From: a virus
Virus record (IMG/VR): IMGVR_UViG_3300021559_000325
Span: 1 to 36,698 of that record
Strand: one strand, 5' to 3'
Length of the DNA: 36,698 nucleotides
Each line of letters starts with the position of its first letter. Within the stretch, counting starts at the first letter, position 1. Position numbers and translations under genes: made by a program. Shown one piece after another: positions 7,669 through 36,698 of the stretch. The notes beneath the pieces are model-generated. The model saw nothing but the letters and a program-made list of their open reading frames with translations, had not been told where the DNA came from and did not search any database.

Positions 7669-10600
7669 TGCGAGTACTCCACTTGTTTCGCCCAGGCAGA
7701 TGCCTTGGCGGATTTATCGACACCGGCCACGACCGTTTTGGCTGCTTTGTCGTTCGATTCGACTGTCGCCTGGATGGTGGCGCCAGTCTGCTTGTCCTGA
7801 TCGGCGCGCAGTCCTTTGACCTCGTCCCGCAGGGTCTTGATTTCGGCAATCAGGGCGTCGTTATTGCCGCCGCCCTGGCTCGGTGCGCCACCGAAGTAAC
7901 GGCGCATGGCAGCGGCAGCTTGCGCGTCGACCACCACCTCGCCGCGGTGCAGCTCGGCCGCATAGCCATCAAACGGCACATTGGCCAGGCCGCCGGCATG
8001 GGAACCGTCGAACTGCACGCCCAAGCCTTTGGCCGTGCCCATCGCCGCATGCAGGTTGGCAATGGCTTGCGCCACCGTCAGCACGCTGTCATTGATGGTG
8101 ATCAGGCCCGAGACCTGGGCCTTGAGGGCGTCCAGGCTGGCCTGCTGCACGTCGACCTGGGCCGAGGCCCATTTCAACGCCTCGTTGTTGGCCGCCACCA
8201 CGCGGGCGTAATCTGCCGCGTAGCGAGCGTCCGAGGCGTTGACCACTTGGGAAGCCGTCAGGAAGGCCTGCTCTGCAGCAGACAGACCGGACTGCGCCGT
8301 GGTGTCGCCGGCATTGGCTGCCGCCAGGGTTTTCTCGAACTGGGCCCGCGCCTCGGCGTATTTCTGCTCCGGCGTCAGCGTGGACTGGTTACCCAGGGCC
8401 ATGCTGGCGTTCAGGCCATTGAGCGTGGCCACCCACGACTTCGATTTATCCAGCGCCGTCTGGGCCGCTGCCGCTTCAGTCTCATACGCCTTGGAAAGCG
8501 CGTCCTTGGCCGTCACCACCGCCTTGGCCGCCTGCACCTGGTCGAACAGCGCACGATTGACGGCGGCGATGCTGGAGCGCTGGATGGCCAGCAGTTCCGT
8601 TTCGCTTTTCGTCAGTTCGTTCAGCTGCTTTTGCAGATCCATGCGCTCACTGGCGATTTCGCTGGCGGTTTTGACGACGGCAGCATAATTGCCGGTCGCT
8701 GCGGCCAGTTGGCTGCTGTAGTCGGCGGCCGCCTTAAAGGCCGGCGCAAGAGCCAGCAGCTTGATGTACATCTCTTGGCCGCCCGTGCTGGCCAGGTCCA
8801 GGCCCAGCACCACTTCCTTGTACTGCTCCACCGATTTGACGCCAGACATGCCCAGCTTGCCCAGCGTATCGGCCACGGTCGACAGCACGGGCGCCATCTG
8901 CTCGGCTTCCGTCAGGAAGTTTTCGGCAAAGAAGCTGGTCCCGCTGGTGAGCGAGTCCAGGCTGCCGGCCAGCTTGATCAGGTTTTCCCGCGCGCCAATG
9001 GTGGCCACGCCCACCGCGCCAAAGGCATCCTGCGACGTGCGGCCGATCAGCTGCAGGGCCGCGTCGACGCCAGCGTAATTCCCGGCCACGCGCTGCAGGG
9101 TGGCGCTCAGTTCCTCGTTGCCCTGCTTGAACTGGCCGACATTGGGCAGCAGCTCGACTGCGATGGCGTTGCCCACCCCCTCGAAAAACTTGGTAACGGC
9201 GCCCAGCCTGTCTGCCTCAGTAGTGAGGCCGGTCAGATTGATGTTCAGCGCCTGGGCGCGCGTGGCCAGGCTGGAAGTATCGATGCCCAGCGTATTGGCC
9301 AAGGTGGCCGAGACGTTGCGGATGGCAGCGTATGTTTCCACAAACGCATTGGACGTCGTGGCGTCGACGGCTTTGCGGTCCGTATCCTTCTTGTCGCTGC
9401 GCAGCCAACCGCCCTTTTGCGTCCATTTGGCATATTCGGTGCCACTGAACCCGGTACCGGACAGCGTCCCGGTAATGCCAGTCTCACCGTACTTCTTTTC
9501 ACCCATGCCGAAAACACGATTGCCAAGGCCTCCGATCAAGCCACCCAGGGCGCCGCCAATGGCCGCGCCGATAGGGCCACCCATGAATGCACCAGCGACG
9601 GCGCCGATGCCGGTGCCGACATTCACCGTAGAGTTGCTGCCATACTGGCCAGAGATCATCCTGCCACCCAGTACACCAGCAGCAATACCGGCGGCGGCCG
9701 TAACTGCCGCTCCAGCGAAGGCGCCAGAAGTCAGCGCGGTGCCCGTGCCGGCCATGCCCGCCGATCCATAGGCTGCGGAAGCCGCAGCCGCCTGCGCTCC
9801 GGTCATCCCCATCCCAGCGCCGAAAGCGGATACAGCGGAGGAACCGAAGAGATTGCCGAGCGTGGCAATGCTACCGCCGATGCCGGCAGCCACACCAGAG
9901 AATCCCTGTGTGGCAATGGTGTAGGCCGTTTTGGCGCTCTGCGCAAGGTTCGCCACGCCGCCAAGCGCGCCACCGGCACCACTGCCGACAGCGCCCAAAT
10001 CACCGGCCATCGCTAGGCTGGTGGCACCAGCACCCGACACCGATGCGCCGATGTTCAAGATCCACTTCTTGATCGTCATTTGGTACAGCAGATCGAGCAG
10101 GCCATTTTTGAGGGTATCGCGCAAGCGGTCGAAAGCGGACTTACCGGAATCAAAGATCGATACGAAGGTGTCATGCGCCGTCTGGTCGATCGACTCCCAC
10201 ATCTTGGTGTGTTCCGCAAGATTGTCTTCGGCCACTTTTTTTTGCGCGGTCAAAGCTTCCAATCCACCCAGCGCGACGGCATTCTGCTTGCGCAGATCGA
10301 TCTCCCGCGTCAGCTGTGCGACATATGCCTCGCTCATGTCGAGCTCACCTCGGCGCGCCAGTCGATCCTCCAGCCGAGCGATCGTCACCAGTTCAATCGC
10401 TTCTTTCGTCAGGCCGAAATTTGCCATCGCATCCTCGTTGCCCTTGACCTCGGCAGCCAGGCTGACGTAGGCCGCGTTCTGCTCATCCGTCAGCGCCTGG
10501 ATGGCCTCGCGCACTTTCTTCGCAGATGCAGTCGATTTGTCCATGGCGTCAGCCTCGGCCATCAGCGTGCGCACATGCGCCAAATGACCGATGCTCAATT

Positions 10601-15089: not shown

Positions 15090-15649
15090 CCGTATGTCCT
15101 GCAAGCATCAAGCAGCCGATCAATAAAAGTGGACTGAACCGTGTCACGTTCACTACGCGTGGCCGGATCGAACTGCTCCACCAACTTCGCGAGCAAGTAA
15201 AGCTGGATGTTTGCTGGCGTTTTATCCGGGGTATTGCCATAACCGCACTTGACTGTCACAACCGCCGTGCAGACGTCTGCACTCGACGGCCACACCATGC
15301 CACGTGCCGGCACCAGGCTCGACTTATACTCGCTGCGCACCAGTTGGTAAGCTGCAGGCGCCACCGTCTGAGTGGCACCCTTCGCATCGATATACTGGAT
15401 AGACACCGCATCGGCGACGCTGAGTACTGGATGCGGCAATGGAATTGATGCTGAGAAACGATCCAGGTGAACTTCCCACGTTTGTTCCATCAGGCACTGG
15501 CCGAGCTGGAATTCGGCATCAGCGATAATGCCGCTCAACCAGGTGGTGATAAGCGCGTCCAGGTACTCCCCGTCGACGCGCAGATTTTCGCGCGCCTTGG
15601 CGAGTGGTACTGCCAATACAGTCGGCCGCTCGATGCAAATTTTTCTCAT
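15086..15649 (-). CDS. head-tail connector (gp6-like, phiE125 gp8 family)
   Basis: 187 residues. An N-terminal helical adaptor (LAKARENLRVDGEYLDALITTW, then IADAEFQLGQCLMEQTWEVHL) is followed by a strand-rich insert and a C-terminal helix (PANIQLYLLAKLVEQFDPAT). This is the usual pattern of HK97 gp6-like connectors, also called phiE125 gp8 family, which form a ring under the portal. A 16-bp palindrome lies within its coding sequence at 15267-15282. Confidence 0.85.
   Translation of the reverse strand: MRKICIERPTVLAVPLAKARENLRVDGEYLDALITTWLSGIIADAEFQLGQCLMEQTWEVHLDRFSASIPLPHPVLSVADAVSIQYIDAKGATQTVAPAAYQLVRSEYKSSLVPARGMVWPSSADVCTAVVTVKCGYGNTPDKTPANIQLYLLAKLVEQFDPATRSERDTVQSTFIDRLLDACRTYG
15267..15282. 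repeat. 16-bp palindrome GTGCAGACGTCTGCAC, copy 1
   Basis: A perfect palindrome inside the head-tail connector gene. The identical 16-mer is at 30728-30743 inside the parB-like gene and a 15/16 copy is at 22413-22428. It resembles in size and symmetry a ParB or repressor site, but no binding is known. Confidence 0.6.
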
Positions 15650-15667
15650 GCGCGTCTTTCGCCAGGA

Positions 15668-16189
15668 TTACTTCGATGCGGCGTTCTTTGCCGTTTTGCT
15701 CGTGGCTGCCGCTACTGCCGCAGCTGCTTCCGCTTCCTTCGCTGCCGCCGCAGCTGCTTCCGCTTCCTTCGCTGCCGCCGCAGCTGCTTCCGCTTCCTTC
15801 GCTGCTGCCGCAGCTGCTTCCGCTTCCTTCGCTGCTGCCGCAGCTGCTTCCGCTTCCTTCGCTGCCGCCGCAGCTGCTTCCGCTTCCTTCGCTGCCGCCG
15901 CAGCTGCTTCCGCTTCCTTCGCTGCCGCCGCAGCTGCTTCCGCTTCCTTCGCTGCCGCCGCAGCTGCTTCCGCTTCCTTCGCTGCTGCCGCAGCTGCTTC
16001 CGCTTCCTTCGCTGCCGCCGCAGCTGCTTCCGCTTCCTTCGCTGCTGGCTTCGCAAATTCGCCAGCACCACAGTCATGGACAAGGTGATTGGCATACTGC
16101 ACATCAGTCAAAACGCTGTCACCAGGGTTGAGCGTGCCGTAGCGAGCTGTCAACGCCTGAATGGTGATGTTCACTTTTACAAGGTCCAT
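15668..16189 (-). CDS. capsid-module protein with 11 alanine-rich decapeptide repeats
   Basis: 173 residues. A short N-terminal domain (MDLVKVNITIQALTARYGTL, then NPGDSVLTDVQYANHLV, about 1-45) looks like the small conserved phage proteins that follow major capsid genes. It is followed by about 11 copies of the decapeptide AKEAEAAAAA and a short tail (AVAAATSKTAKNAASK). The repeats should form a long, soluble single helix with charged Lys/Glu faces, similar in style to TolA repeats. I chose the ATG at 16189 for its AGGAG ribosome site; a longer upstream reading crosses a hairpin. Whether it is a head decoration, a connector part or a non-virion protein is unknown. Confidence 0.75.
   Translation of the reverse strand: MDLVKVNITIQALTARYGTLNPGDSVLTDVQYANHLVHDCGAGEFAKPAAKEAEAAAAAAKEAEAAAAAAKEAEAAAAAAKEAEAAAAAAKEAEAAAAAAKEAEAAAAAAKEAEAAAAAAKEAEAAAAAAKEAEAAAAAAKEAEAAAAAAKEAEAAAAVAAATSKTAKNAASK
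15721..16050 (-). repeat. 11 tandem copies of a 30-bp coding repeat
   Basis: Eleven in-frame 30-bp units with almost no divergence. The only internal variation is a synonymous C/T (gctgccgccg versus gctgctgccg), giving the order C C T T C C C C T C from left to right, with the last unit ending differently. Low divergence suggests recent expansion or homogenisation by slippage or recombination. Confidence 0.95.
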
Positions 16190-22412: not shown

Positions 22413-22428
22413 GTGCAGGCGTCTGCAC
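22413..22428. repeat. 16-bp palindrome, copy 2 (one mismatch)
   Basis: GTGCAGGCGTCTGCAC differs at one base from the perfect copies at 15267 and 30728. It is the only copy outside coding sequence and sits upstream of the packaging genes. Confidence 0.55.
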
Positions 22429-29655: not shown

Positions 29656-29855
29656 CCGCCCCGCTTGTCCATCTGGCAATCGACGTGCGTAGCGTGCTTG
29701 CTAGGCCGCTGCACGAACTGCGCGGCTTCACCCACCCGGATGGCCGCGCCATGACCCCGCGACAAGCAAAGGCCGCACTGGTGGCGCAACTGGCCGAGGG
29801 CCATGAACTCCTGCCCATCGGCAACAGCACCCCTTTCGATTTCATTAAACGCTAA
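29652..29855 (+). CDS. small early protein, unknown
   Basis: 67 residues, MTAPLVHLAIDVRSVLARPL, with a helical segment TPRQAKAALVAQLAEGHELL. The frame is fixed by ATGA overlap with the previous gene. It ends about 35 bases before the parB-like gene. No domain recognised. Confidence 0.6.
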   Translation: MTAPLVHLAIDVRSVLARPLHELRGFTHPDGRAMTPRQAKAALVAQLAEGHELLPIGNSTPFDFIKR

Positions 29856-29889
29856 CCGGGCCGTACCCGCCCGCAACCAGGAGCCGCAC

Positions 29890-32055
29890 ATGAGCGACCT
29901 CGTAATACCCACCATCGGAAGCATGAAGAAAGCCCCGGCACGCAGCGAGAAACCCATCGTCGTCGACGAGCTGGTCGACGACCAGGTATTCGCAATCACC
30001 GATTGGGCCGACATCCGCCCCAGCTACACCAACCGTAAACGGTTCAACCAGGCTGCGTTGGAGCAACTGGCCGCCAACATTAAGGAAGTCGGGATTGTCC
30101 AGCCCATCCTGATTCGCCCGGTCACGCCAACCGCTGACGCGCCTCAGCATTTCGAGATCGTCGCCGGCGAGCGCCGCTGGCGCGCTGGCAACATCGCCGA
30201 GCTGCAGCGCGGTCCGACCATGATCCGCACGCTGACGGACCTGCAGGCGCGCGAGATCCAGCTGCTGGAGAACCTGCAGCGCGAAGACCCGCACCCGATG
30301 GAAGAGGCCGAAGGTTTCCAAGAGCTGATGCTCAATGCGGGCTACACCGCAGATCGCTTGGTGGATAAACTGAAGAAGTCGCGCAGCCATATCTATGGTC
30401 GTCTGAAGCTGTGCGCCCTGACGACCGAGGTGCGCGAGAAATTCCTCGATAATGTGATCTCGGCGTCGACGGCGCTGCTGATCGCACGCGTGCCCGTGCC
30501 GGCGCTTCAGATCAAGGCCCTGGCCGACATTAGCGCACCCTACCAAGGCACTGGCGAGCCTATGCCCTACCGCGCCGCGCTTCGCCACATCCAGGAGCGC
30601 TATACCGTCGACTTGACGCGCGCGCTATTCAAGCTCAGCGATGCCACGCTCCTGCCCCTGGCCGGCGCCTGCACCAAATGCCCAAAGAAGACCGGCAATC
30701 AGCCGGAGGTATTCGGCGACATCAAAAGTGCAGACGTCTGCACTGACCCGGACTGTTACGCCGAGAAGCGCATGGCACACGATACGCTGACCATTGCTGC
30801 TGCAAGTAAAACCGGCGTTCCGGTCTATGAAGGCGCCGAAGGGGCAACCATCTATCGTAAAAACACCTACGACCGTTATAGCCTGTTTGTCATGGCCAAC
30901 TCTCCCCTGTGGGTGTTTGATCGCAATTCGCCTGCCACCCAAAATCAAGGCAATGCAGCAACTTACCTCGATGGCGGCCTACTGCCTGAGCCAGCGTGGT
31001 ATGTAAAGCACGAAGGAGGCGAAGTGACCCCGTTTTACGACAAGGCTCCAATCCAAAAATTGCTTGAAGACGCTGGTGCATGTGAAACGGTCGAAGTTCA
31101 TGCGGCACGCATGGCCGATGTGCGCGCCATGGCCGAGAAAAAAGAAGCGGCCGCGAACACGCCAGCCAAACTTGCTGAAATGGCAAAGCAACGCGATGAA
31201 AGGGAGACCGCTGAGAAAAAAGAAGAAGTCGACGAACTGTACCGCATCGAACTCTACAAACGCCTGCGCGCACGGGGCGCCAACGGTTTCTCACTGGCCT
31301 CGCTACGCGAATTTACCAAACTGGTGCTGATTGACCGCGATCTGCCAGACGAGGCCCTCGCCGGCGTATACACGTTTGATACCTCCAGTACCGAGAGCAT
31401 CCACGCTTACATCGATCAGGCCGGCCTGCCTGACGTGCAGCTGCTGCTGGTCGACATGCTCTTAGGTGATTGCTTGGTCTCCTCTGGCATGGGGTGGTTC
31501 AAAAAAGAGGAGCGTGAAGCTCAAGAGACCGCGATACACGCCATGGCCAGGCTTGAGGGCATCGACCCTGATGCCGTACGCCTGCAGCTGGAAATGGAAT
31601 CGATCACGCTTGAGGATGTCCAGGAAAACCAGCTGGGTACCATCATTGCCCACGCATCATGGCGCCTGAATGACCTCACCAAATTCATCATCGCCGAACG
31701 GCCTCACCTGCTCAACGTCCTCGAACGGGCCGCCAAAGAAAATGGCTGGCAATACGCACCAGGTCAAGTATGGCTGCGCGCCGACGAAACAAGCGCACCT
31801 GGCGTGGCCCACGTGGCGCCGGAGCAATCCAACGATGAAGATGCCGACGACCTCGCAGATCAAATCAACTTGGCGCCGCAGGACGACGTAGCCGTAATCG
31901 AGCCGCCCGCAGCGGTTGCGATCGAGCCGCCAGAACCAGAAGCCAAGAAGCCAGCACCACGCACACGTAAGCCCAAAAGCCCAACGAAGCCTGCAGCATG
32001 GCCCTGGCCAACATCCGCAACCGCATCACCAACTACCGCGAAGGAAGCACAATGA
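29890..32055 (+). CDS. large ParB/RepB/Spo0J-like protein, no ParA partner
   Basis: 721 residues; ATG at 29890 with AGGAG ribosome site. The ParB N-terminal core is clear: IKEVGIVQPILIRP (64-77), GERRWRAG (93-100), LLENLQREDPHPMEEAEG (125-142), then a helix-turn-helix (about 150-175). A Cys set (C261, C264, C284, C289) may bind zinc. The rest is long, with a charged helix (about 410-440) and a Lys/Pro-rich tail. In newer work ParB domains bind CTP. No ParA or plasmid-type gene lies near, so a role in gene regulation or DNA organisation is more likely than partition. One copy of the 16-bp palindrome lies inside the gene. Confidence 0.88.
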   Translation: MSDLVIPTIGSMKKAPARSEKPIVVDELVDDQVFAITDWADIRPSYTNRKRFNQAALEQLAANIKEVGIVQPILIRPVTPTADAPQHFEIVAGERRWRAGNIAELQRGPTMIRTLTDLQAREIQLLENLQREDPHPMEEAEGFQELMLNAGYTADRLVDKLKKSRSHIYGRLKLCALTTEVREKFLDNVISASTALLIARVPVPALQIKALADISAPYQGTGEPMPYRAALRHIQERYTVDLTRALFKLSDATLLPLAGACTKCPKKTGNQPEVFGDIKSADVCTDPDCYAEKRMAHDTLTIAAASKTGVPVYEGAEGATIYRKNTYDRYSLFVMANSPLWVFDRNSPATQNQGNAATYLDGGLLPEPAWYVKHEGGEVTPFYDKAPIQKLLEDAGACETVEVHAARMADVRAMAEKKEAAANTPAKLAEMAKQRDERETAEKKEEVDELYRIELYKRLRARGANGFSLASLREFTKLVLIDRDLPDEALAGVYTFDTSSTESIHAYIDQAGLPDVQLLLVDMLLGDCLVSSGMGWFKKEEREAQETAIHAMARLEGIDPDAVRLQLEMESITLEDVQENQLGTIIAHASWRLNDLTKFIIAERPHLLNVLERAAKENGWQYAPGQVWLRADETSAPGVAHVAPEQSNDEDADDLADQINLAPQDDVAVIEPPAAVAIEPPEPEAKKPAPRTRKPKSPTKPAAWPWPTSATASPTTAKEAQ
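30728..30743. repeat. 16-bp palindrome GTGCAGACGTCTGCAC, copy 3
   Basis: Inside the parB-like gene; extends to 18 bp as an exact palindrome (A...T). The bases encode SADVCT, part of a conserved Cys motif, and copy 1 encodes SADVCT too, so coding constraint could explain part of the match. The gap copy at 22413 argues against pure coincidence. Confidence 0.6.
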
Positions 32056-32663
32056 ACAGCGAGAACATCGCGGCCACGACCGCCCAGGAACGTATTGACG
32101 CAGTCGAAGTCCAGGAATGCCTGTCCTGGCCAAACGCTCCAGCCGCCGCTTACTGCGACACCTGGCTGATGGTCAACGTCGGCGCACTCAATTTCAAAGC
32201 AAGCGAAGAGCACCAGGTGGCGGCAATGGCCAACATTGGACACCAGCTGCGGCAGGAGATCGCCGCATATCGGCCGGCATTCAAGTGGACCACCAGCCCG
32301 ACTGAGATCGTCGGCGCCCTGATCGAGGAAATGGCATTGTCAAATGCTGCCCGCGACGTGCTTACTGAGCGTCGCCGGCAGATCACTACAAAAGGATGGG
32401 ATCACGATCACGACGACGCACAGCGCAATGACGAAATAGCCGCGTTCGCTGCCGTGTACGCGATGCCTGAAGGCGCTCGCGACTGGCCAGCAAAAGAAAC
32501 TGGATTCGGCCGAACGTTTGCGGAAGCGCTGATTCCCTTTTGCTGGGAACCGAAGTTCGGCGACCGCCGCCGTGACCTGGTGAAAGCCGCCGCACTGCTC
32601 GTCGCCGAAATTGAGCGCATCGACCGAGCAGCTATCGCTACCAGCGAACAGGAGGCGTCATGA
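32052..32663 (+). CDS. conserved-type phage protein, unknown function
   Basis: 203 residues from the ATG at 32052, overlapping the parB-like stop by ATGA. The C-terminal half has the pattern VLTERRRQITTKGWDHDHDD, NDEIAAFAAVYA, and RRDLVKAAALLVAEIERID, which I have seen as a recurring all-helical family in many phages, with no assigned function that I can defend. The N-terminal part (ECLSWPNAPAAAYCDTWLMV) is unrelated to anything I recognise. It is coupled to the next gene by ATGA. Confidence 0.75.
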   Translation: MNSENIAATTAQERIDAVEVQECLSWPNAPAAAYCDTWLMVNVGALNFKASEEHQVAAMANIGHQLRQEIAAYRPAFKWTTSPTEIVGALIEEMALSNAARDVLTERRRQITTKGWDHDHDDAQRNDEIAAFAAVYAMPEGARDWPAKETGFGRTFAEALIPFCWEPKFGDRRRDLVKAAALLVAEIERIDRAAIATSEQEAS

Positions 32664-32905
32664 GAATACTTCCCTTCGGATACCGACGCCTCATGCGCAG
32701 CTTGGAGCAGCACCTCGCCGACCAAGTCGAGCAACGCGAAGACAAAGCCATCGCAGCGCACATGGCTGCCGTCAATGCCTCGCTCGGCAAGCCATCAAAA
32801 CGGCGCCAGAACCGCGCTGAGCCGATGCCCTACCGCTTGCATATCGCCATCGCTCTCGCATGGCTGGCGAGCATCCTGTTCAGTCTGTACTGGTGGTATC
32901 CATGA
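32660..32905 (+). CDS. small single-helix membrane protein, unknown
   Basis: 81 residues: a charged, basic N-terminal half (RRLMRSLEQHLADQVEQRED) and a C-terminal membrane helix (HIAIALAWLASILFSLYWWYP, written as residues about 61-81). The positive side before the helix suggests the N-terminus stays in the cytoplasm. Starts and ends with ATGA overlaps. No function can be named. Confidence 0.65.
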   Translation: MRILPFGYRRLMRSLEQHLADQVEQREDKAIAAHMAAVNASLGKPSKRRQNRAEPMPYRLHIAIALAWLASILFSLYWWYP

Positions 32906-33129
32906 CTAATTACTTAAGCGCATCCGAACTGGCCGAGCTGGTCGGATGCAAGCCTGGCCAGCGCTGCCGTATGCAGGCTTGGCTGACCAAAAACCGCTGG
33001 AAGTTTGAAGTCGACGCGCGCGGTCTACCGAAAGTGGCACGCGCCTATCATGATCGCAAGATGGGCATCACCGAAGAAGCAACCTCAATCAAATATGACC
33101 AAGCACCAAACCTCCAAGCCTTCTGCTAA
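32902..33129 (+). CDS. DUF4224 protein, possible recombination directionality factor
   Basis: 75 residues, ATG at 32902 overlapping the previous stop. MTNYLSASELAELVGCKPGQ, then QAWLTKNRWKFEVDARGLPK and VARAYHDRKMG match the DUF4224 family, short helix-turn-helix proteins usually found directly before phage integrases. A role as excisionase or directionality factor is a common suggestion. Its 3-prime end overlaps the integrase start by 35 bases, so the two must be coexpressed. Confidence 0.85.
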   Translation: MTNYLSASELAELVGCKPGQRCRMQAWLTKNRWKFEVDARGLPKVARAYHDRKMGITEEATSIKYDQAPNLQAFC

Positions 33130-34300
33130 AGAACGCACCGGCGTCGACCGCCTTTACAAGCGCGTCGGCGTCCGGAAGATCTCCTATTATTACCAGCACC
33201 CGGACGGCAGCAGCGAGACGCTGGCCACGGCCGTGATCGGCGATCGCAAAGGCATCGCCGACGCGGATCGCGCGGCAAAGCGCAAGGCGCTCGACATCAT
33301 CGAGGGCAAGATCATCGCCGGATCAGTGGCCCAGTTGATCGAGCGGTTCCGCGACGAGATCGCGCCCACCCATTACCTGGACCAGTCCAAGGATGGCCTG
33401 GCCGTCAGGGAGTCCGGCTACAAGAACCTGACCAAGTTCTTCGGCAAAATGGATCCGAAGTCGCTGCGCATGCTGCACGGCTATCAGTACCTCGATGCGC
33501 GCGCCAAAGCCGGCGCGCCGGCGAAGGCGAACAAGGAATTGTCGCTGATGTCGACGATCTGCAAATACGCAGTGCGCTGGGGCGTGATTGAGGCGATGCC
33601 GTTCACGGACATCATGCAGAACGATATCGAGAAGGATGTGCGGACAATCACACGCAGCCAGGTGGTGCGTTTTTACCTGTGGTCGCTGCGTCAGACCGCC
33701 ACCTTCCGCAACCTGGGTTGCGCGGCCATGTTTACTTACCTGACCGGCTTTCGTGCGGCAGAGGTGCGGCCGTTCCATATCGATGGCAAAACGAAGGAAG
33801 GCGTGCTTGTCACCAGCGCCAAGCGCAAGAAGGGCCAGGCCGAGGTCATGAAACTGCGGGAGTGGTCAACCAAGTTGCGTGTAGTTGTCGCGCGCGCTGA
33901 GCAAACGCACTCTGTTCCTCGCCAGTTCCTTTTCGCTAATTCAAAAGGCCAAGCATACACGCGGTCGGGGATGGGGTCAGTGTGGCAGGACGCCATGTTC
34001 GAGTGGATCGCGTCGTTTGACACCGAGGCGGCGGCAGCACTTGCTCGCAAACGCGCTGCCGAGCTGGAATATATCCTGGCGTACAAGAAGGGACTGAAAG
34101 TTGCGAAATATGAGGCCGACTACCGGCTGGCAGACCACGCACAGTATTTTTCACTGCAGGACATCCGGCCAGCGGCAATCACAGCCAAGTTCGACCAGCG
34201 CAACGTTGACGCATATGATTTCGCCGCTCATGCGAACCCCAGCACCACCCACAAGCACTATGACCGCAGGAAAATAAAGAAGGCGGGCGCAACCGAGTGA
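33095..34300 (+). CDS. tyrosine-family site-specific integrase
   Basis: 401 residues from the ATG at 33095. N-terminal arm and core-binding regions precede the catalytic domain: LTGFRAAEVRPF with R220, then LQDIRPAAITAKF with R358, AAHANPSTTHKHYDRR with H379/H386 and the nucleophile Tyr389. At the first box II position (normally His) there is Gln355; this variation is known in some integrases but should be noted. An extra helical insert (about 305-350, Ala/Lys-rich) separates boxes I and II. It would integrate and, with the DUF4224 protein, excise the phage. It ends the plus-strand operon under the repressor-controlled promoter. Confidence 0.92.
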   Translation: MTKHQTSKPSAKERTGVDRLYKRVGVRKISYYYQHPDGSSETLATAVIGDRKGIADADRAAKRKALDIIEGKIIAGSVAQLIERFRDEIAPTHYLDQSKDGLAVRESGYKNLTKFFGKMDPKSLRMLHGYQYLDARAKAGAPAKANKELSLMSTICKYAVRWGVIEAMPFTDIMQNDIEKDVRTITRSQVVRFYLWSLRQTATFRNLGCAAMFTYLTGFRAAEVRPFHIDGKTKEGVLVTSAKRKKGQAEVMKLREWSTKLRVVVARAEQTHSVPRQFLFANSKGQAYTRSGMGSVWQDAMFEWIASFDTEAAAALARKRAAELEYILAYKKGLKVAKYEADYRLADHAQYFSLQDIRPAAITAKFDQRNVDAYDFAAHANPSTTHKHYDRRKIKKAGATE

Positions 34301-34479
34301 GTATTCTACGTAGGCTGGTCACTAGTCCCATCACAACCTGGAAACCTATTGCCATCCAAGCCAAGAAAATGAACTTCCTGTCTGAAAACCTTTATGCAAA
34401 AACCGACTCTAAGGTCCGCTTTCACCCAAAAGAGGAAGTTCAGCAGATCAGTTAATTATACCGAGCGAGTAGCCTTTCG
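34301..34479. other. gap after integrase; candidate attachment region
   Basis: No gene seen. A 9-bp inverted repeat GAACTTCCT (34371-34379) and AGGAAGTTC (34433-34441) encloses a 53-base segment. A hairpin AGTAGC/GCTACT (34468-34484) overlaps the HNH stop. Attachment sites commonly lie beside the integrase end, but no second copy of any core sequence is in the window, and no tRNA is visible. Confidence 0.45.
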
Positions 34480-35667
34480 CTACTGTGTATTATTGTGAGG
34501 TAATTCTATAATTTCGCGATTTGGTATATCCATTTGATGAGATATATGGGCTGCCATAGCGTTAGCGACTTCGCTTGCAATTTTCACCGCCTGAGTTTTC
34601 GAAATAGGGGCTCCTGGCTTGAGTCCGTATTTCTCCATCGATATCTTCAGCGCTGTTTCTAGAGTATTGTTGAGGCTTCGTTCATCCGCGCGCCTCAATA
34701 GGGGGCCGATCATCTTCTCTAGCTCAGAGTGGTAATTTTCAAACCCATAGCCGCTGACAATCTTCTTTACATCCTCATCCGCCAAGGGCCAGTTCAAAGT
34801 CACGTGGGCTGGCTTCCCTGTAGTAGGATCAAGGGCATAAATCTCATTGATCGGTGGCCCATCGTAACGTTTGCTAAGAACAATTAACCACCGTGCGAGA
34901 CCAAAGTATTCCACATACGCAAACAGTTGATTCGACGCCTGGTCACTATACAACCCCAAGCAATGAAAGAATGCCCCATGAGGGCGATCCTTCACTAGAT
35001 CGGATAGGTACCCAAGCCCACAACAACTTGCATCGCTTGGCAGCACTTGGCCGGCCTCATCGAGTACCGGTTCTGATAAGAGAAATTCTTGAGTATTTTC
35101 GCAAATCGAGGAGGGTATACCCCTCGAAAATGCAAAGGCCAAGGCTGTTTTTACGACCGATCTGTCCGCCAACTCCCCCCCAAACTGCAGTTGAATCTTG
35201 AGAGGCTCCTTAAGATAGGTAGTTTTAATTTGCGCCTGTTCTAACGCTTGAGCTTTGTTAATTTTAGGATAACGTTTCGCCAGCTCATTAATTTTCCTGG
35301 TAGCTTCCTTCATCGTCCTCGGAGTCATGGAGATTTTGACGCTTCCGTCTTCCTCAACTCTGGAAAATGCAAATTCCGCTGGCTCCAACGAACCGTTGTT
35401 GAGAAGATTAAACCTCTTCCCTGACACGGTCTCCACAACGGCAGGAGGGACCTCACCACGATCCCGAACAATTCCAAGCGTTAACGATAGCCAATGGAAT
35501 TGATCAGCAAGGACGGTGTCCCATGTTGCTCCCTTGTTGTTGTTGCAAGAGTTACATATGAAGCCACCGATTTTTACGATGCCGCCAATCGAATTTGGAA
35601 TGATATGTTCTTTTGTCCAGTTTTCTTCGCTTAACGTTACTGGGCACAGTGCACAATGAGTGTTCAT
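34480..35667 (-). CDS. HNH endonuclease, candidate defence nuclease
   Basis: 395 residues. The N-terminal HNH module carries CALC (5-8), the active-site KEHIIPNSIGG (19-29, His21) and CNSCNNNKG (38-46), the HNH_5 type. The remaining 340 residues are of unknown fold: a charged helical part (MKEATRKINELAKRY), then a mixed core with VKTALAFAFSRGIPSS and FAYVEYFGLARWLIVLS, and a C-terminal helical region. DNA here is clearly more AT-rich than the phage genes, so it was acquired separately. It overlaps the 48-residue ORF upstream by ATGA. Similar HNH proteins occur in defence islands, but the target is unknown. Confidence 0.85.
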   Translation of the reverse strand: MNTHCALCPVTLSEENWTKEHIIPNSIGGIVKIGGFICNSCNNNKGATWDTVLADQFHWLSLTLGIVRDRGEVPPAVVETVSGKRFNLLNNGSLEPAEFAFSRVEEDGSVKISMTPRTMKEATRKINELAKRYPKINKAQALEQAQIKTTYLKEPLKIQLQFGGELADRSVVKTALAFAFSRGIPSSICENTQEFLLSEPVLDEAGQVLPSDASCCGLGYLSDLVKDRPHGAFFHCLGLYSDQASNQLFAYVEYFGLARWLIVLSKRYDGPPINEIYALDPTTGKPAHVTLNWPLADEDVKKIVSGYGFENYHSELEKMIGPLLRRADERSLNNTLETALKISMEKYGLKPGAPISKTQAVKIASEVANAMAAHISHQMDIPNREIIELPHNNTQ

Positions 35668-35810
35668 GCTGGTTTCGGGTTTATTGTCATTTGTTTCGCC
35701 AACGAGGAAAAATAGTGAGATGCCTGGTTTGGCTGTTGGGCTAAGTTGGCGATCAAGTCATCGAGGAATATTGCTGAAATGAAAATATCGTAGACTATCT
35801 CGACCGGCAT
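35664..35810 (-). CDS. 48-residue ORF coupled to the HNH gene
   Basis: Starts ATG at 35810 (MPVEIVYDIFISAIFLDDL), ends LAKQMTINPKPA with TGA inside the HNH start (ATGA). The sequence is hydrophobic-acidic at the start and could form two helices; no domain recognised. A GGAGG precedes the ATG by only 2 bases, closer than usual. The frame is open 18 codons further up, without a start. It may be a small partner of the HNH nuclease, or the end of a longer, lost gene. Confidence 0.5.
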   Translation of the reverse strand: MPVEIVYDIFISAIFLDDLIANLAQQPNQASHYFSSLAKQMTINPKPA

Positions 35811-35890
35811 GTCCTCCAGCAGGAAGAGGACGGTCGAGTACTTACGAAATCGGCACCCCCGCTAGCGATCCGCCAAAGTTAACGCATCTA

Positions 35891-35909
35891 GCTACAGCTA
35901 CAGCTACAG
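35891..35909 (-). repeat. triple CTGTAG hexamer giving three in-frame stops
   Basis: The TIR gene ends AAA CTG TAG CTG TAG CTG TAG on the minus strand, three copies of a 6-base unit, each with an in-frame TAG (35904, 35898, 35892). Loss or gain of whole units would not alter the protein. Confidence 0.9.
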
Positions 35910-36698
35910 TTTGTAGATCGCCTTCAATTCACGTTGCAGGACATGGAAGCCTCCTTCGATGTTGCCTTTCGCAAAAGGTATGTACGCAACACCTGACAGA
36001 TTCGTCGGAATGTTGACGCCCTCTTCGTGCAGCAGCACTACCTGGCTTCGTCCGTAGCGGCCTTGGAAGAAACCGATCTCGTGCATAACGTTCTCGCGAA
36101 CTCGCGCTTCATCCTCATTTGCAACATCGTCACCTGTCATCACGATCACCGCGCTATCACACCGGTCGGCGTTATCGATCAGCTTCTCGATGATTGTGCG
36201 CCCCTGATTGGGTTCCTGCGCAAGCTCAATAGTAGGAATCGCGACATCCTTCTCAATGAAAGGTTGTACCCGTCGCCAGTCTTCTGAATGGCCATGTGTG
36301 AGAAATACCCTTCGCCGTGCCTCTCGCTTGGGCTGCTCTAGCTCGCTGTTCGCGCGCATTTCAAAAATCTGGTCAATGTCTCGACATAAACGCTCGGCTT
36401 GGCGGCGTGAGTAATGCCGTGGGGCGGGTTGGCCACTACTGAGTGTTGCCATCTGCATTTCCGGCTCTATGGCTATAGCTTGAAAGTCGCCGTATAGGTC
36501 AGGGAGCAGTCTTTTTAGCGCTTCGAGGCACTTGGCCGCTTGCATAAAATAGTGCTCAACCAACTCTGGTTCGAAATTGGTACGAGTCAGCACTACGCCA
36601 TTGTCGCGACCTCGGCCCACGTTCTCGCTCATCACCGCGCTTATTGCTCTGCCAACGCCGGCGAGCTTCGACATGACAACAGACAGTTCACCGCTCAT
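35904..36698 (-). CDS. TIR-like predicted nucleotide-binding protein, candidate defence effector
   Basis: 264 residues to the window edge; the last three bases read as an ATG, so the true start may lie beyond. Residues 130-262 match the TIR-like family found in CAP12/Pycsar-type effectors (PF10137): VFLTHGHSEDW (131-141), AQEPNQGRTIIEKL (160-173), MTGDDVANEDEAR (187-199), and RENVMHEIGFFQGRYG (201-216) with Glu207 as the candidate catalytic residue. Such domains typically cleave NAD+ when a cyclic nucleotide or another signal binds. The N-terminal 130 residues are helical and may sense or oligomerise. No cyclase gene is in view. It lies upstream of the small ORF and HNH gene on the same strand. 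Confidence 0.85.
   Translation of the reverse strand: MSGELSVVMSKLAGVGRAISAVMSENVGRGRDNGVVLTRTNFEPELVEHYFMQAAKCLEALKRLLPDLYGDFQAIAIEPEMQMATLSSGQPAPRHYSRRQAERLCRDIDQIFEMRANSELEQPKREARRRVFLTHGHSEDWRRVQPFIEKDVAIPTIELAQEPNQGRTIIEKLIDNADRCDSAVIVMTGDDVANEDEARVRENVMHEIGFFQGRYGRSQVVLLHEEGVNIPTNLSGVAYIPFAKGNIEGGFHVLQRELKAIYKL

What the first reader, a model, noticed from the sequence alone, without database searches (positions are those of the whole stretch)
34480..36698. TIR-like protein, 48-residue ORF and HNH nuclease: candidate anti-phage cluster at the integrase end
Three genes point the same way: a TIR-like effector (35904-36698), a small ORF (35664-35810) and an HNH endonuclease (34480-35667) coupled to it by ATGA. 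The DNA is visibly more AT-rich than the phage, and the cluster sits next to the integrase, a common place for cargo or island genes. TIR-like and HNH proteins are both known effectors in phage defence, but this three-part set is not one I recognise. The 93-base gap between the TIR gene and the small ORF leaves open that they are separate.
Basis: partly seen in the sequence, partly recalled or inferred. Interest (0 to 1): 0.8.

Follow-up and report, generated by a model that had tools for sequence, protein, structure and literature searches.

The report
Prophage slot carrying unlinked defence-like genes
The TIR and HNH genes are real, but they look like two separate passenger genes that a bacterial virus probably carries in a variable slot beside its integrase, where its closest relatives carry other genes, one of them resembling a known anti-phage gene.

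Summary
The TIR gene (35904-36698, minus) and HNH gene (34480-35667, minus) are real and lie beside the integrase in AT-rich DNA. They are not a conserved three-gene system: of 140 loci fetched, only the window's own holds both; 30 others hit the TIR and 23 others the HNH. The 48-codon ORF is no longer than chance gives (588 of 2000 shuffles) and has no relative among those loci. The TIR is a standalone CAP12/Pycsar-type protein (PF10137, PADLOC PDC-S35) with an invariant glutamate 207 and its own helical N-terminus. The HNH is a standalone HNH_5 protein of plasmids and phages. What links them is place. In four sister prophages (integrase 92-97% identical where matched) a tRNA-His 3' end, the likely attachment site, lies 0.6-2.3 kb past the integrase; each carries different AT-rich cargo there, one resembling the defence gene PD-T4-7, and the host DNA beyond is 91-93% identical. 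The window shows no tRNA-His end, so HNH and TIR probably fill this slot. Best reading: two independent single-gene anti-phage candidates in a variable prophage cargo slot. Defence is inferred, not shown.

The parts
32860..33129 (+). excisionase-like ORF (DUF4224) upstream of the integrase
   Evidence: PF13986 2.2e-8; that DUF4224 proteins are excisionase-like is partly recalled, the matching gene of BgManors32 is annotated excisionase
33095..34300 (+). tyrosine integrase of the prophage (ATG at 33095; one search lists a TTG at 33005)
   Evidence: phrog_1 integrase 1.2e-16; 97% identical sister copies in G655 and G561
34301..34382 (.). stretch past the integrase stop still alignable with two of four sister prophages; cargo begins at or after it
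   Evidence: blastn alignments end at 34301 (L126), 34305 (L127), 34336 (L128) and 34382 (L129)
34464..34484 (+). terminator-like hairpins between the convergent integrase and HNH genes
   Evidence: 5 such sites in the region against a shuffle mean of 2.9, so weak
34480..35667 (-). HNH_5 nuclease, 395 aa; cargo gene
   Evidence: PF14279 5.4e-12; C5, C8, C38, C41 and E20-H21 invariant in the 5 sequences of A5
35664..35810 (-). 48-codon ORF, probably not a gene
   Evidence: 588 of 2000 shuffles give one as long; no relatives in 140 loci
35904..36698 (-). CAP12/Pycsar-type TIR protein, 264 aa, helical N-terminal part plus C-terminal TIR; cargo gene
   Evidence: PF10137 2e-28; PDC-S35 1.5e-32; fold match to TIR-STING, Z 14.2
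35970..36311 (-). TIR domain, residues 130-243
   Evidence: PF10137 boundaries
36078..36080 (-). codon of Glu207, catalytic-type glutamate
   Evidence: invariant in 22 of 22 aligned sequences; aligned with the Glu of NVVFEFG in TIR-STING; that this Glu is the catalytic one is recalled

Best explanation
The HNH and TIR genes are separate cargo genes in a variable slot between the integrase gene and the attachment site (3' end of tRNA-His) of a Burkholderiales (Oxalobacteraceae-type) temperate phage. Shown: the genes, their families, no HNH-TIR linkage in the other loci fetched, and variable cargo in this slot in four sister prophages. Inferred by position: the window's own attachment site lies beyond the end of the record, so both genes are in the phage. 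Inferred by family: the TIR is a single-gene abortive-infection effector. Its conserved helical N-terminal part senses infection or drives oligomerisation, the TIR domains assemble and Glu207 cleaves NAD+, stopping the infected cell before a rival phage matures. The HNH protein is a separate nuclease acting on invading nucleic acid. Both would protect the lysogen, and so the prophage, against other phages.
For: Relatives of the integrase use tRNA-His: of 57 relatives at 45% identity or more with at least 60 nt past the gene (one contig listed twice), 45 have the tRNA-His 3' end, 36 within 260 nt and 9 at 311-1369 nt, five of these nine with an ORF of over 140 codons in between. In sister prophages with 92-97% integrase identity where matched, the spacing is 1830, 612, 1241 and 2275 nt, the contents differ in all four, GC is 0.43-0.48 against 0.60-0.63 on the host side, and the host DNA past the site is 91.5-92.6% identical to that of L126 over 2.7-2.8 kb. 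Cargo in L129 includes a PD-T4-7-like protein (PADLOC 1.5e-24); L126 and L055 have DUF4062 proteins. The window has no tRNA-His 3' end, its right end matches none of the sister host DNA and its slot DNA is AT-rich. TIR: PF10137, PDC-S35, TIR-STING fold, Glu207 invariant. Some TIR relatives lie beside PADLOC-matched genes such as a type IV restriction enzyme (2.3e-247) or PD-T7-1 (2.6e-126). HNH: in two Pseudomonas plasmids a stump of the HNH relative sits where a NotI-type restriction-modification pair now lies. HNH and TIR each occur without the other in the loci fetched.
Against: No protection assay. The window's own attachment site was not seen; its place in the slot rests on sister prophages, two of which (G572, G583) have interrupted integrase genes. 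12 of the 57 integrase relatives show no recognisable tRNA-His end, so another site is possible. Of 14 proteins found past the integrase in relatives and scanned with PADLOC, one matches strongly (L129), five weakly (8.7e-7 to 0.008; one of them a homing endonuclease) and eight not at all; two of the loci (L071, L114) have no tRNA-His end. The HNH has no PADLOC match and no solved fold match at E 0.001; one relative lacks the HNH motif and C38 is not kept in L031 and L033.
Confidence: 0.6

Rival explanations
1. The three ORFs form one operon and one defence system: TIR effector, small accessory protein and HNH nuclease.
For: Same strand, ATGA overlap, no terminator-like site in the gap.
Against: Of 140 loci fetched only the window's own has both (30 other TIR loci, 23 other HNH loci). 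Of 9 genomes of close TIR relatives 1 has an HNH match, 25% identical. Small ORF within chance and without relatives.
Confidence: 0.07
2. HNH and TIR are host chromosome genes beside the prophage, not phage cargo.
For: The attachment site was not seen in the window; homology to the sister prophages ends 0-81 nt past the integrase stop; TIR relatives occur on bacterial contigs.
Against: All four sister prophages have other, AT-rich DNA there and only then tRNA-His and shared host DNA. The window's right end matches none of those regions, and no tRNA-His end separates int from HNH or TIR.
Confidence: 0.1
3. The HNH protein is not a defence gene but a mobile or housekeeping endonuclease of phages and plasmids (homing, packaging or DNA processing); only the TIR is defensive.
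For: HNH relatives sit in mixed plasmid and phage places, near ParA, IS elements or, judged by eye, a lysis gene. A homing-type HNH_3/AP2 protein sits in the same slot of L092.
Against: The HNH motif is followed by a long conserved C-terminal part. Some relatives lie within 6 kb of restriction or toxin-antitoxin genes.
Confidence: 0.2
4. The TIR is the effector of a larger cyclase-type system (CBASS or Pycsar) whose other genes lie right of the record end.
For: The TIR domain is of the CAP12/Pycsar family; the right side is unread.
Against: No STING domain after the TIR, which ends the protein. Far below the NCBIfam Cap12 cut-off, 41.4 against 450 bits. In 129 ORFs around 25 relatives no cyclase is among the PADLOC families matched by 2 or more (25 of 47 families were shown).
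Confidence: 0.06

Closest known systems
PADLOC candidate PDC-S35 / Pfam PF10137 (CAP12-PCTIR_TIR) standalone TIR proteins
   Same: Same TIR domain (1.5e-32 and 2e-28); no fixed partner gene seen
   Different: The best PDC-S35 match begins only at residue 100; this subfamily has its own conserved N-terminal 120 residues
Cap12 TIR-STING of CBASS
   Same: Top solved fold match, Z 14.2, rmsd 2.7 over 126 residues, though other TIR folds follow at Z 11-13; aligned glutamate
   Different: No STING domain, TIR at the C-terminus instead of the N-terminus, no cyclase seen
Prophage defence hotspots (P2 and P4 of E. coli; Vibrio and Bacillus prophages), PMC9122126 and PMC9519451, passages read
   Same: Small variable locus with different cargo in each copy, some of it known defence genes
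   Different: Here the slot lies between the integrase and a tRNA-His attachment site in Burkholderiales phages; defence by annotation only
HNH_5 (PF14279) endonucleases on plasmids and phages
   Same: CxxC...EHIIPN...CxxCN motif; 13 of 16 plasmid records match over 65-93% of the length at 25-36% identity, 4 viral contigs at 28-34%
   Different: Function of the family not found here; no PADLOC or NCBIfam match

Membership tests
CBASS Cap12 (TIR-STING) | TIR domain of the CAP12 type | tested here: met
   PF10137 99.2 bits against cut-off 24.7; fold match
CBASS Cap12 (TIR-STING) | STING domain after the TIR; NCBIfam equivalog score | tested here: not met
   TIR match ends at residue 243 of 264; 41.4 and 32.1 bits against 450
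CBASS Cap12 (TIR-STING) | adjacent CD-NTase | tested here: inconclusive
   right side unread; no cyclase among PADLOC families matched by 2 or more of 129 ORFs around 25 relatives
Thoeris ThsB (PF08937) | ThsB-type TIR | tested here: not met
   only PF10137 matched at E up to 1
PDC-S35 single-gene TIR candidates | match to the PADLOC models | tested here: met
   1.5e-32, residues 100-260; N-terminal part not covered
PDC-S35 single-gene TIR candidates | protects against phage | not testable with these tools
   no assay; the search for PDC-S35 found no paper
prophage defence hotspot | different cargo between the same two anchors in related prophages | tested here: met
   four sister prophages, four different contents between int and tRNA-His; for the window itself the right anchor is inferred
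prophage defence hotspot | contents include known defence systems | tested here: inconclusive
   1 strong, 5 weak and 8 no PADLOC matches among 14 proteins
HNH_5 endonuclease | zinc cysteines and catalytic His | tested here: met
   PF14279 5.4e-12; C5, C8, C38, C41, H21 kept in all 5 of A5; among plasmid relatives L036 lacks the motif and L031 and L033 lack C38

The most novel reading that the evidence does not exclude
The slot between integrase and the tRNA-His attachment site is a dedicated defence-cargo site of a large Burkholderiales phage group, and it here carries two undescribed single-gene anti-phage systems: a TIR NADase with its own helical sensor domain and an HNH_5 nuclease with a long unknown C-terminal domain.
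Probability: 0.35. Interest if true: 0.55.

Novelty: new member of a known kind. Interest (0 to 1): 0.4.

Why it matters
Variable slots in prophages are a productive source of new anti-phage genes. This one has two clean anchors (integrase and tRNA-His), so its contents could be listed across many Burkholderiales genomes. It also shows that virus records that stop at a gene end can lose the attachment site, so that cargo next to an integrase may be mistaken for host DNA or for an operon.

Tried and rejected
A three-gene unit was rejected after the co-occurrence tests. A weak HNH hit beside the TIR in L007 (E 0.003, residues 249-370) lies outside the HNH motif and above the E 1e-3 limit. Reading the genes as host flank was judged unlikely after the sister prophages. 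Direct repeats that would mark attachment sites at the two ends of the window: none among the 20 of 26 families shown. tRNA genes in the window: none; Rfam matches in 32000-36698 up to E 1: none. Integrase searches: genus of G002 0 of 5 genomes, order of G002 4 of 399, all distant, family of G001 7 of 294. HNH in the order of G002: 2 of 399, both distant, the better 26% identical at 6.9e-24. TIR there at E 1e-20: 4 of 399. HNH in 'phages': none; HNH as a single query in viral contigs: none. TIR in seven genomes with integrase relatives: 1 of 7, 37% identical, at another place. The HNH fold gave no PDB match at E 0.001 (model of middling quality, pLDDT 74.6). The N-terminal part of the TIR was not searched alone; the rows span mainly residues 127-264. 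Paper searches: PDC-S35 none; CAP12-PCTIR_TIR none; PF10137 with TIR one listed, passages read; BgManors32 none; DUF4062 with prophage none; the lists were seen as listings, from which PMC9122126, PMC12860723 and PMC13026187 were opened for passages. PMC12860723 and PMC13026187 report variable or expressed genes downstream of the integrase in other Burkholderia phages, so cargo beside an integrase in this group is not new as such.

Full report
What is there. The three ORFs exist as described. The window is a whole virus record of 36698 bases that ends on the TIR start codon. Of ten proteins scanned with PHROGs, six match tail, tape-measure, terminase, primase or integrase families, and a DUF4224 ORF precedes the integrase. 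GC falls from 0.594 before the integrase end to 0.491 after it. The host is not known; the closest TIR is from an Oxalobacteraceae MAG (L002, 87%), and the sister prophages below are from genomes drawn from the family of that MAG.

The TIR protein. It matches Pfam PF10137 (2e-28, residues 130-243), PADLOC PDC-S35 (1.5e-32) and weakly Cap12 (41.4 bits against a cut-off of 450). Twenty relatives were found in genome contigs at 40-87% and five in viral contigs at 51-61%, labelled as Proteobacteria, Verrucomicrobia, Nitrospira, Bacteroidetes, Planctomycetes and others; many are MAGs. In an alignment of 22 (L012, L014, L016 and L020, partial or split, left out) Glu207 is invariant. The AlphaFold2 model (mean pLDDT 83.4, pTM 0.51) has a helical N-terminal part and a C-terminal TIR. 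The best PDB matches are TIR-STING (Foldseek 8.5e-7; Z 14.2, rmsd 2.7, 126 residues). PMC13142454 (preprint, passages read) states that TIR-STING uses a catalytic glutamate to deplete NAD+. That this protein does so is inference.

The HNH protein. PF14279 (5.4e-12) at residues 5-57, then about 330 residues without a match above a cut-off. Relatives: 16 plasmid records, none above 37% identity (all 16 contexts read), 4 viral contigs, none in 'phages'. On Pseudomonas plasmids it sits beside parA; in two of them (H15, H16) only about 80 codons match and a NotI-type restriction enzyme and a methyltransferase follow, which hints at exchange with a defence gene. The model is of middling quality and matched no solved fold at E 0.001.

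Are they a unit? Of 140 loci fetched, 31 have a TIR hit and 24 an HNH hit at E 1e-3; only the window's own locus has both (L026 repeats L008, several plasmid records are near copies, and loci such as L025-L028 carry only about 1.5 kb of flank). The 1133 plasmid records that hit the TIR were not examined for neighbours. In 9 genomes of close TIR relatives one HNH match turned up, 25% identical. Around 25 TIR relatives, 129 ORFs were scanned: no PADLOC family matched more than 3, and no cyclase is among those matched by 2 or more (25 of 47 families shown). The nearest relative, L002, is alignable to the window only from the TIR stop to the record end, not to the left of the gene. The small ORF is within chance. 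No terminator-like site lies between TIR and HNH, so joint transcription remains possible.

The slot. The integrase gave 64 loci in viral contigs and a free phage relative, BgManors32 (56%), whose circular genome has a tRNA-His 3' end 158 nt past the integrase. Of 57 relatives with at least 45% identity and 60 nt of downstream DNA (L039 and L070 are one contig; some metagenome contigs are near copies), 45 carry the tRNA-His 3' end (up to 9 mismatches in 48; 0 of 50 shuffles of 34301-36698 have one): 36 within 260 nt and 9 at 311-1369 nt. Twelve show none, among them L051, which repeats L038, the 94% sister record. Ten further rows end at the integrase stop and were dropped from this count. Seen past the integrase: DUF4062 proteins (L038, L055), a weakly trypsin-like protein (L057), HNH_3/AP2 (L092) and proteins without a clear family (L074, L076). 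L071 has an AAA/STAND-like ATPase and L114 an asparagine-synthase protein, but neither shows a tRNA-His end, so their limits are unknown.

Sister prophages. Of 294 genomes drawn from the family of G001, 7 have the integrase at E 1e-60. Four are 92-97% identical where matched: G655, G561, G572 (in two pieces) and a remnant in G583. In each, tRNA-His follows after 1830, 612, 1241 and 2275 nt, with different contents: a DUF4062 protein; a 123-aa lipoprotein-like ORF; a 256-aa ORF; and a PD-T4-7-like protein (PADLOC 1.5e-24; it contains one ambiguous residue) with a 251-aa ORF. Of the slot proteins compared, with the window's, only two resemble each other, the DUF4062 proteins (26%). Host DNA on the far side of L127, L128 and L129 is 91.5-92.6% identical to that of L126 over 2.7-2.8 kb. 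The slot DNA has GC 0.43-0.48. The other three (L130-L132, integrase about 65%) have tRNA-His at about 90, 630 and 120 nt, in L131 after a DUF1643 gene. The window shows no tRNA-His end, so its attachment site probably lies right of 36698 and HNH and TIR fill the slot. This last step is inference by position.

How it likely works. TIR: sensing or oligomerisation through residues 1-120, TIR assembly, NAD+ cleavage through Glu207, and abortive infection that spares the lysogen population. HNH: a nuclease on invading nucleic acid. Each would act alone. The logic is established for TIR-STING; nothing here tests it for these proteins.

Compared with known systems. PMC9122126 (passages) and PMC9519451 (passages) describe prophage hotspots with defence cargo, including Vibrio prophages with cargo between cI and integrase. 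PMC12860723 (passages) notes variable genes downstream of the integrase in Burkholderia phages. The present slot is another member of that kind, at a different place (integrase to tRNA-His) in another phage group. I found no paper on this slot in the ten searches made.

Noticed in passing
L013:5742-5957, L016:991-1206, L017:5548-5769, L018:5520-5741, L021:5748-5963: A conserved 71-73-residue ORF (YTIKDFxxGDxVYHLSN...) follows the TIR gene directly in five Bacteroidetes/Cloacimonadota loci and was not seen in the ORF lists of the proteobacterial ones; a possible partner of that TIR branch.
   Followed up: partly
L134-L140; L032, L034, L037 (HNH context on Pseudomonas plasmids): The place beside parA holds a full HNH gene in some plasmids and, in H15 and H16, an HNH stump followed by a NotI-type restriction enzyme and a methyltransferase.
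   Followed up: partly
window 15267-15282, 22413-22428, 30728-30743: Three copies of the 16-base palindrome GTGCAG(A/G)CGTCTGCAC; six strand matches against at most 2 in 100 shuffles. One lies inside the ParB-domain gene 29803-32055, so they may be its binding sites. L061 has a copy too.
   Followed up: partly
window 15650-16135: Tandem array with a 30-base period, overlapped by open frames on both strands.
   Followed up: no
window 34297-34455: A 52-codon ORF overlaps the integrase stop (GTGA); its first part is alignable with sister prophages L128 and L129.
   Followed up: partly
window 35890-35909: Short direct repeats of AGCTAC across the TIR stop codon.
   Followed up: no
window right end; L038, L040, L052, L054, L077, L087, L094, L096, L104, L107: Virus records end exactly on a start codon or right at the integrase stop, so that the attachment site is missing, probably cut off when the record was trimmed.
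   Followed up: partly
L129:8935-12115: Integrase remnant beside a complete tRNA-His while a second tRNA-His 3' end lies at 8935: a decayed prophage whose cargo is still in place.
   Followed up: no
L115:5114-5926: A DUF2971 protein (4.6e-11) lies directly before the HNH relative in this viral contig.
   Followed up: no
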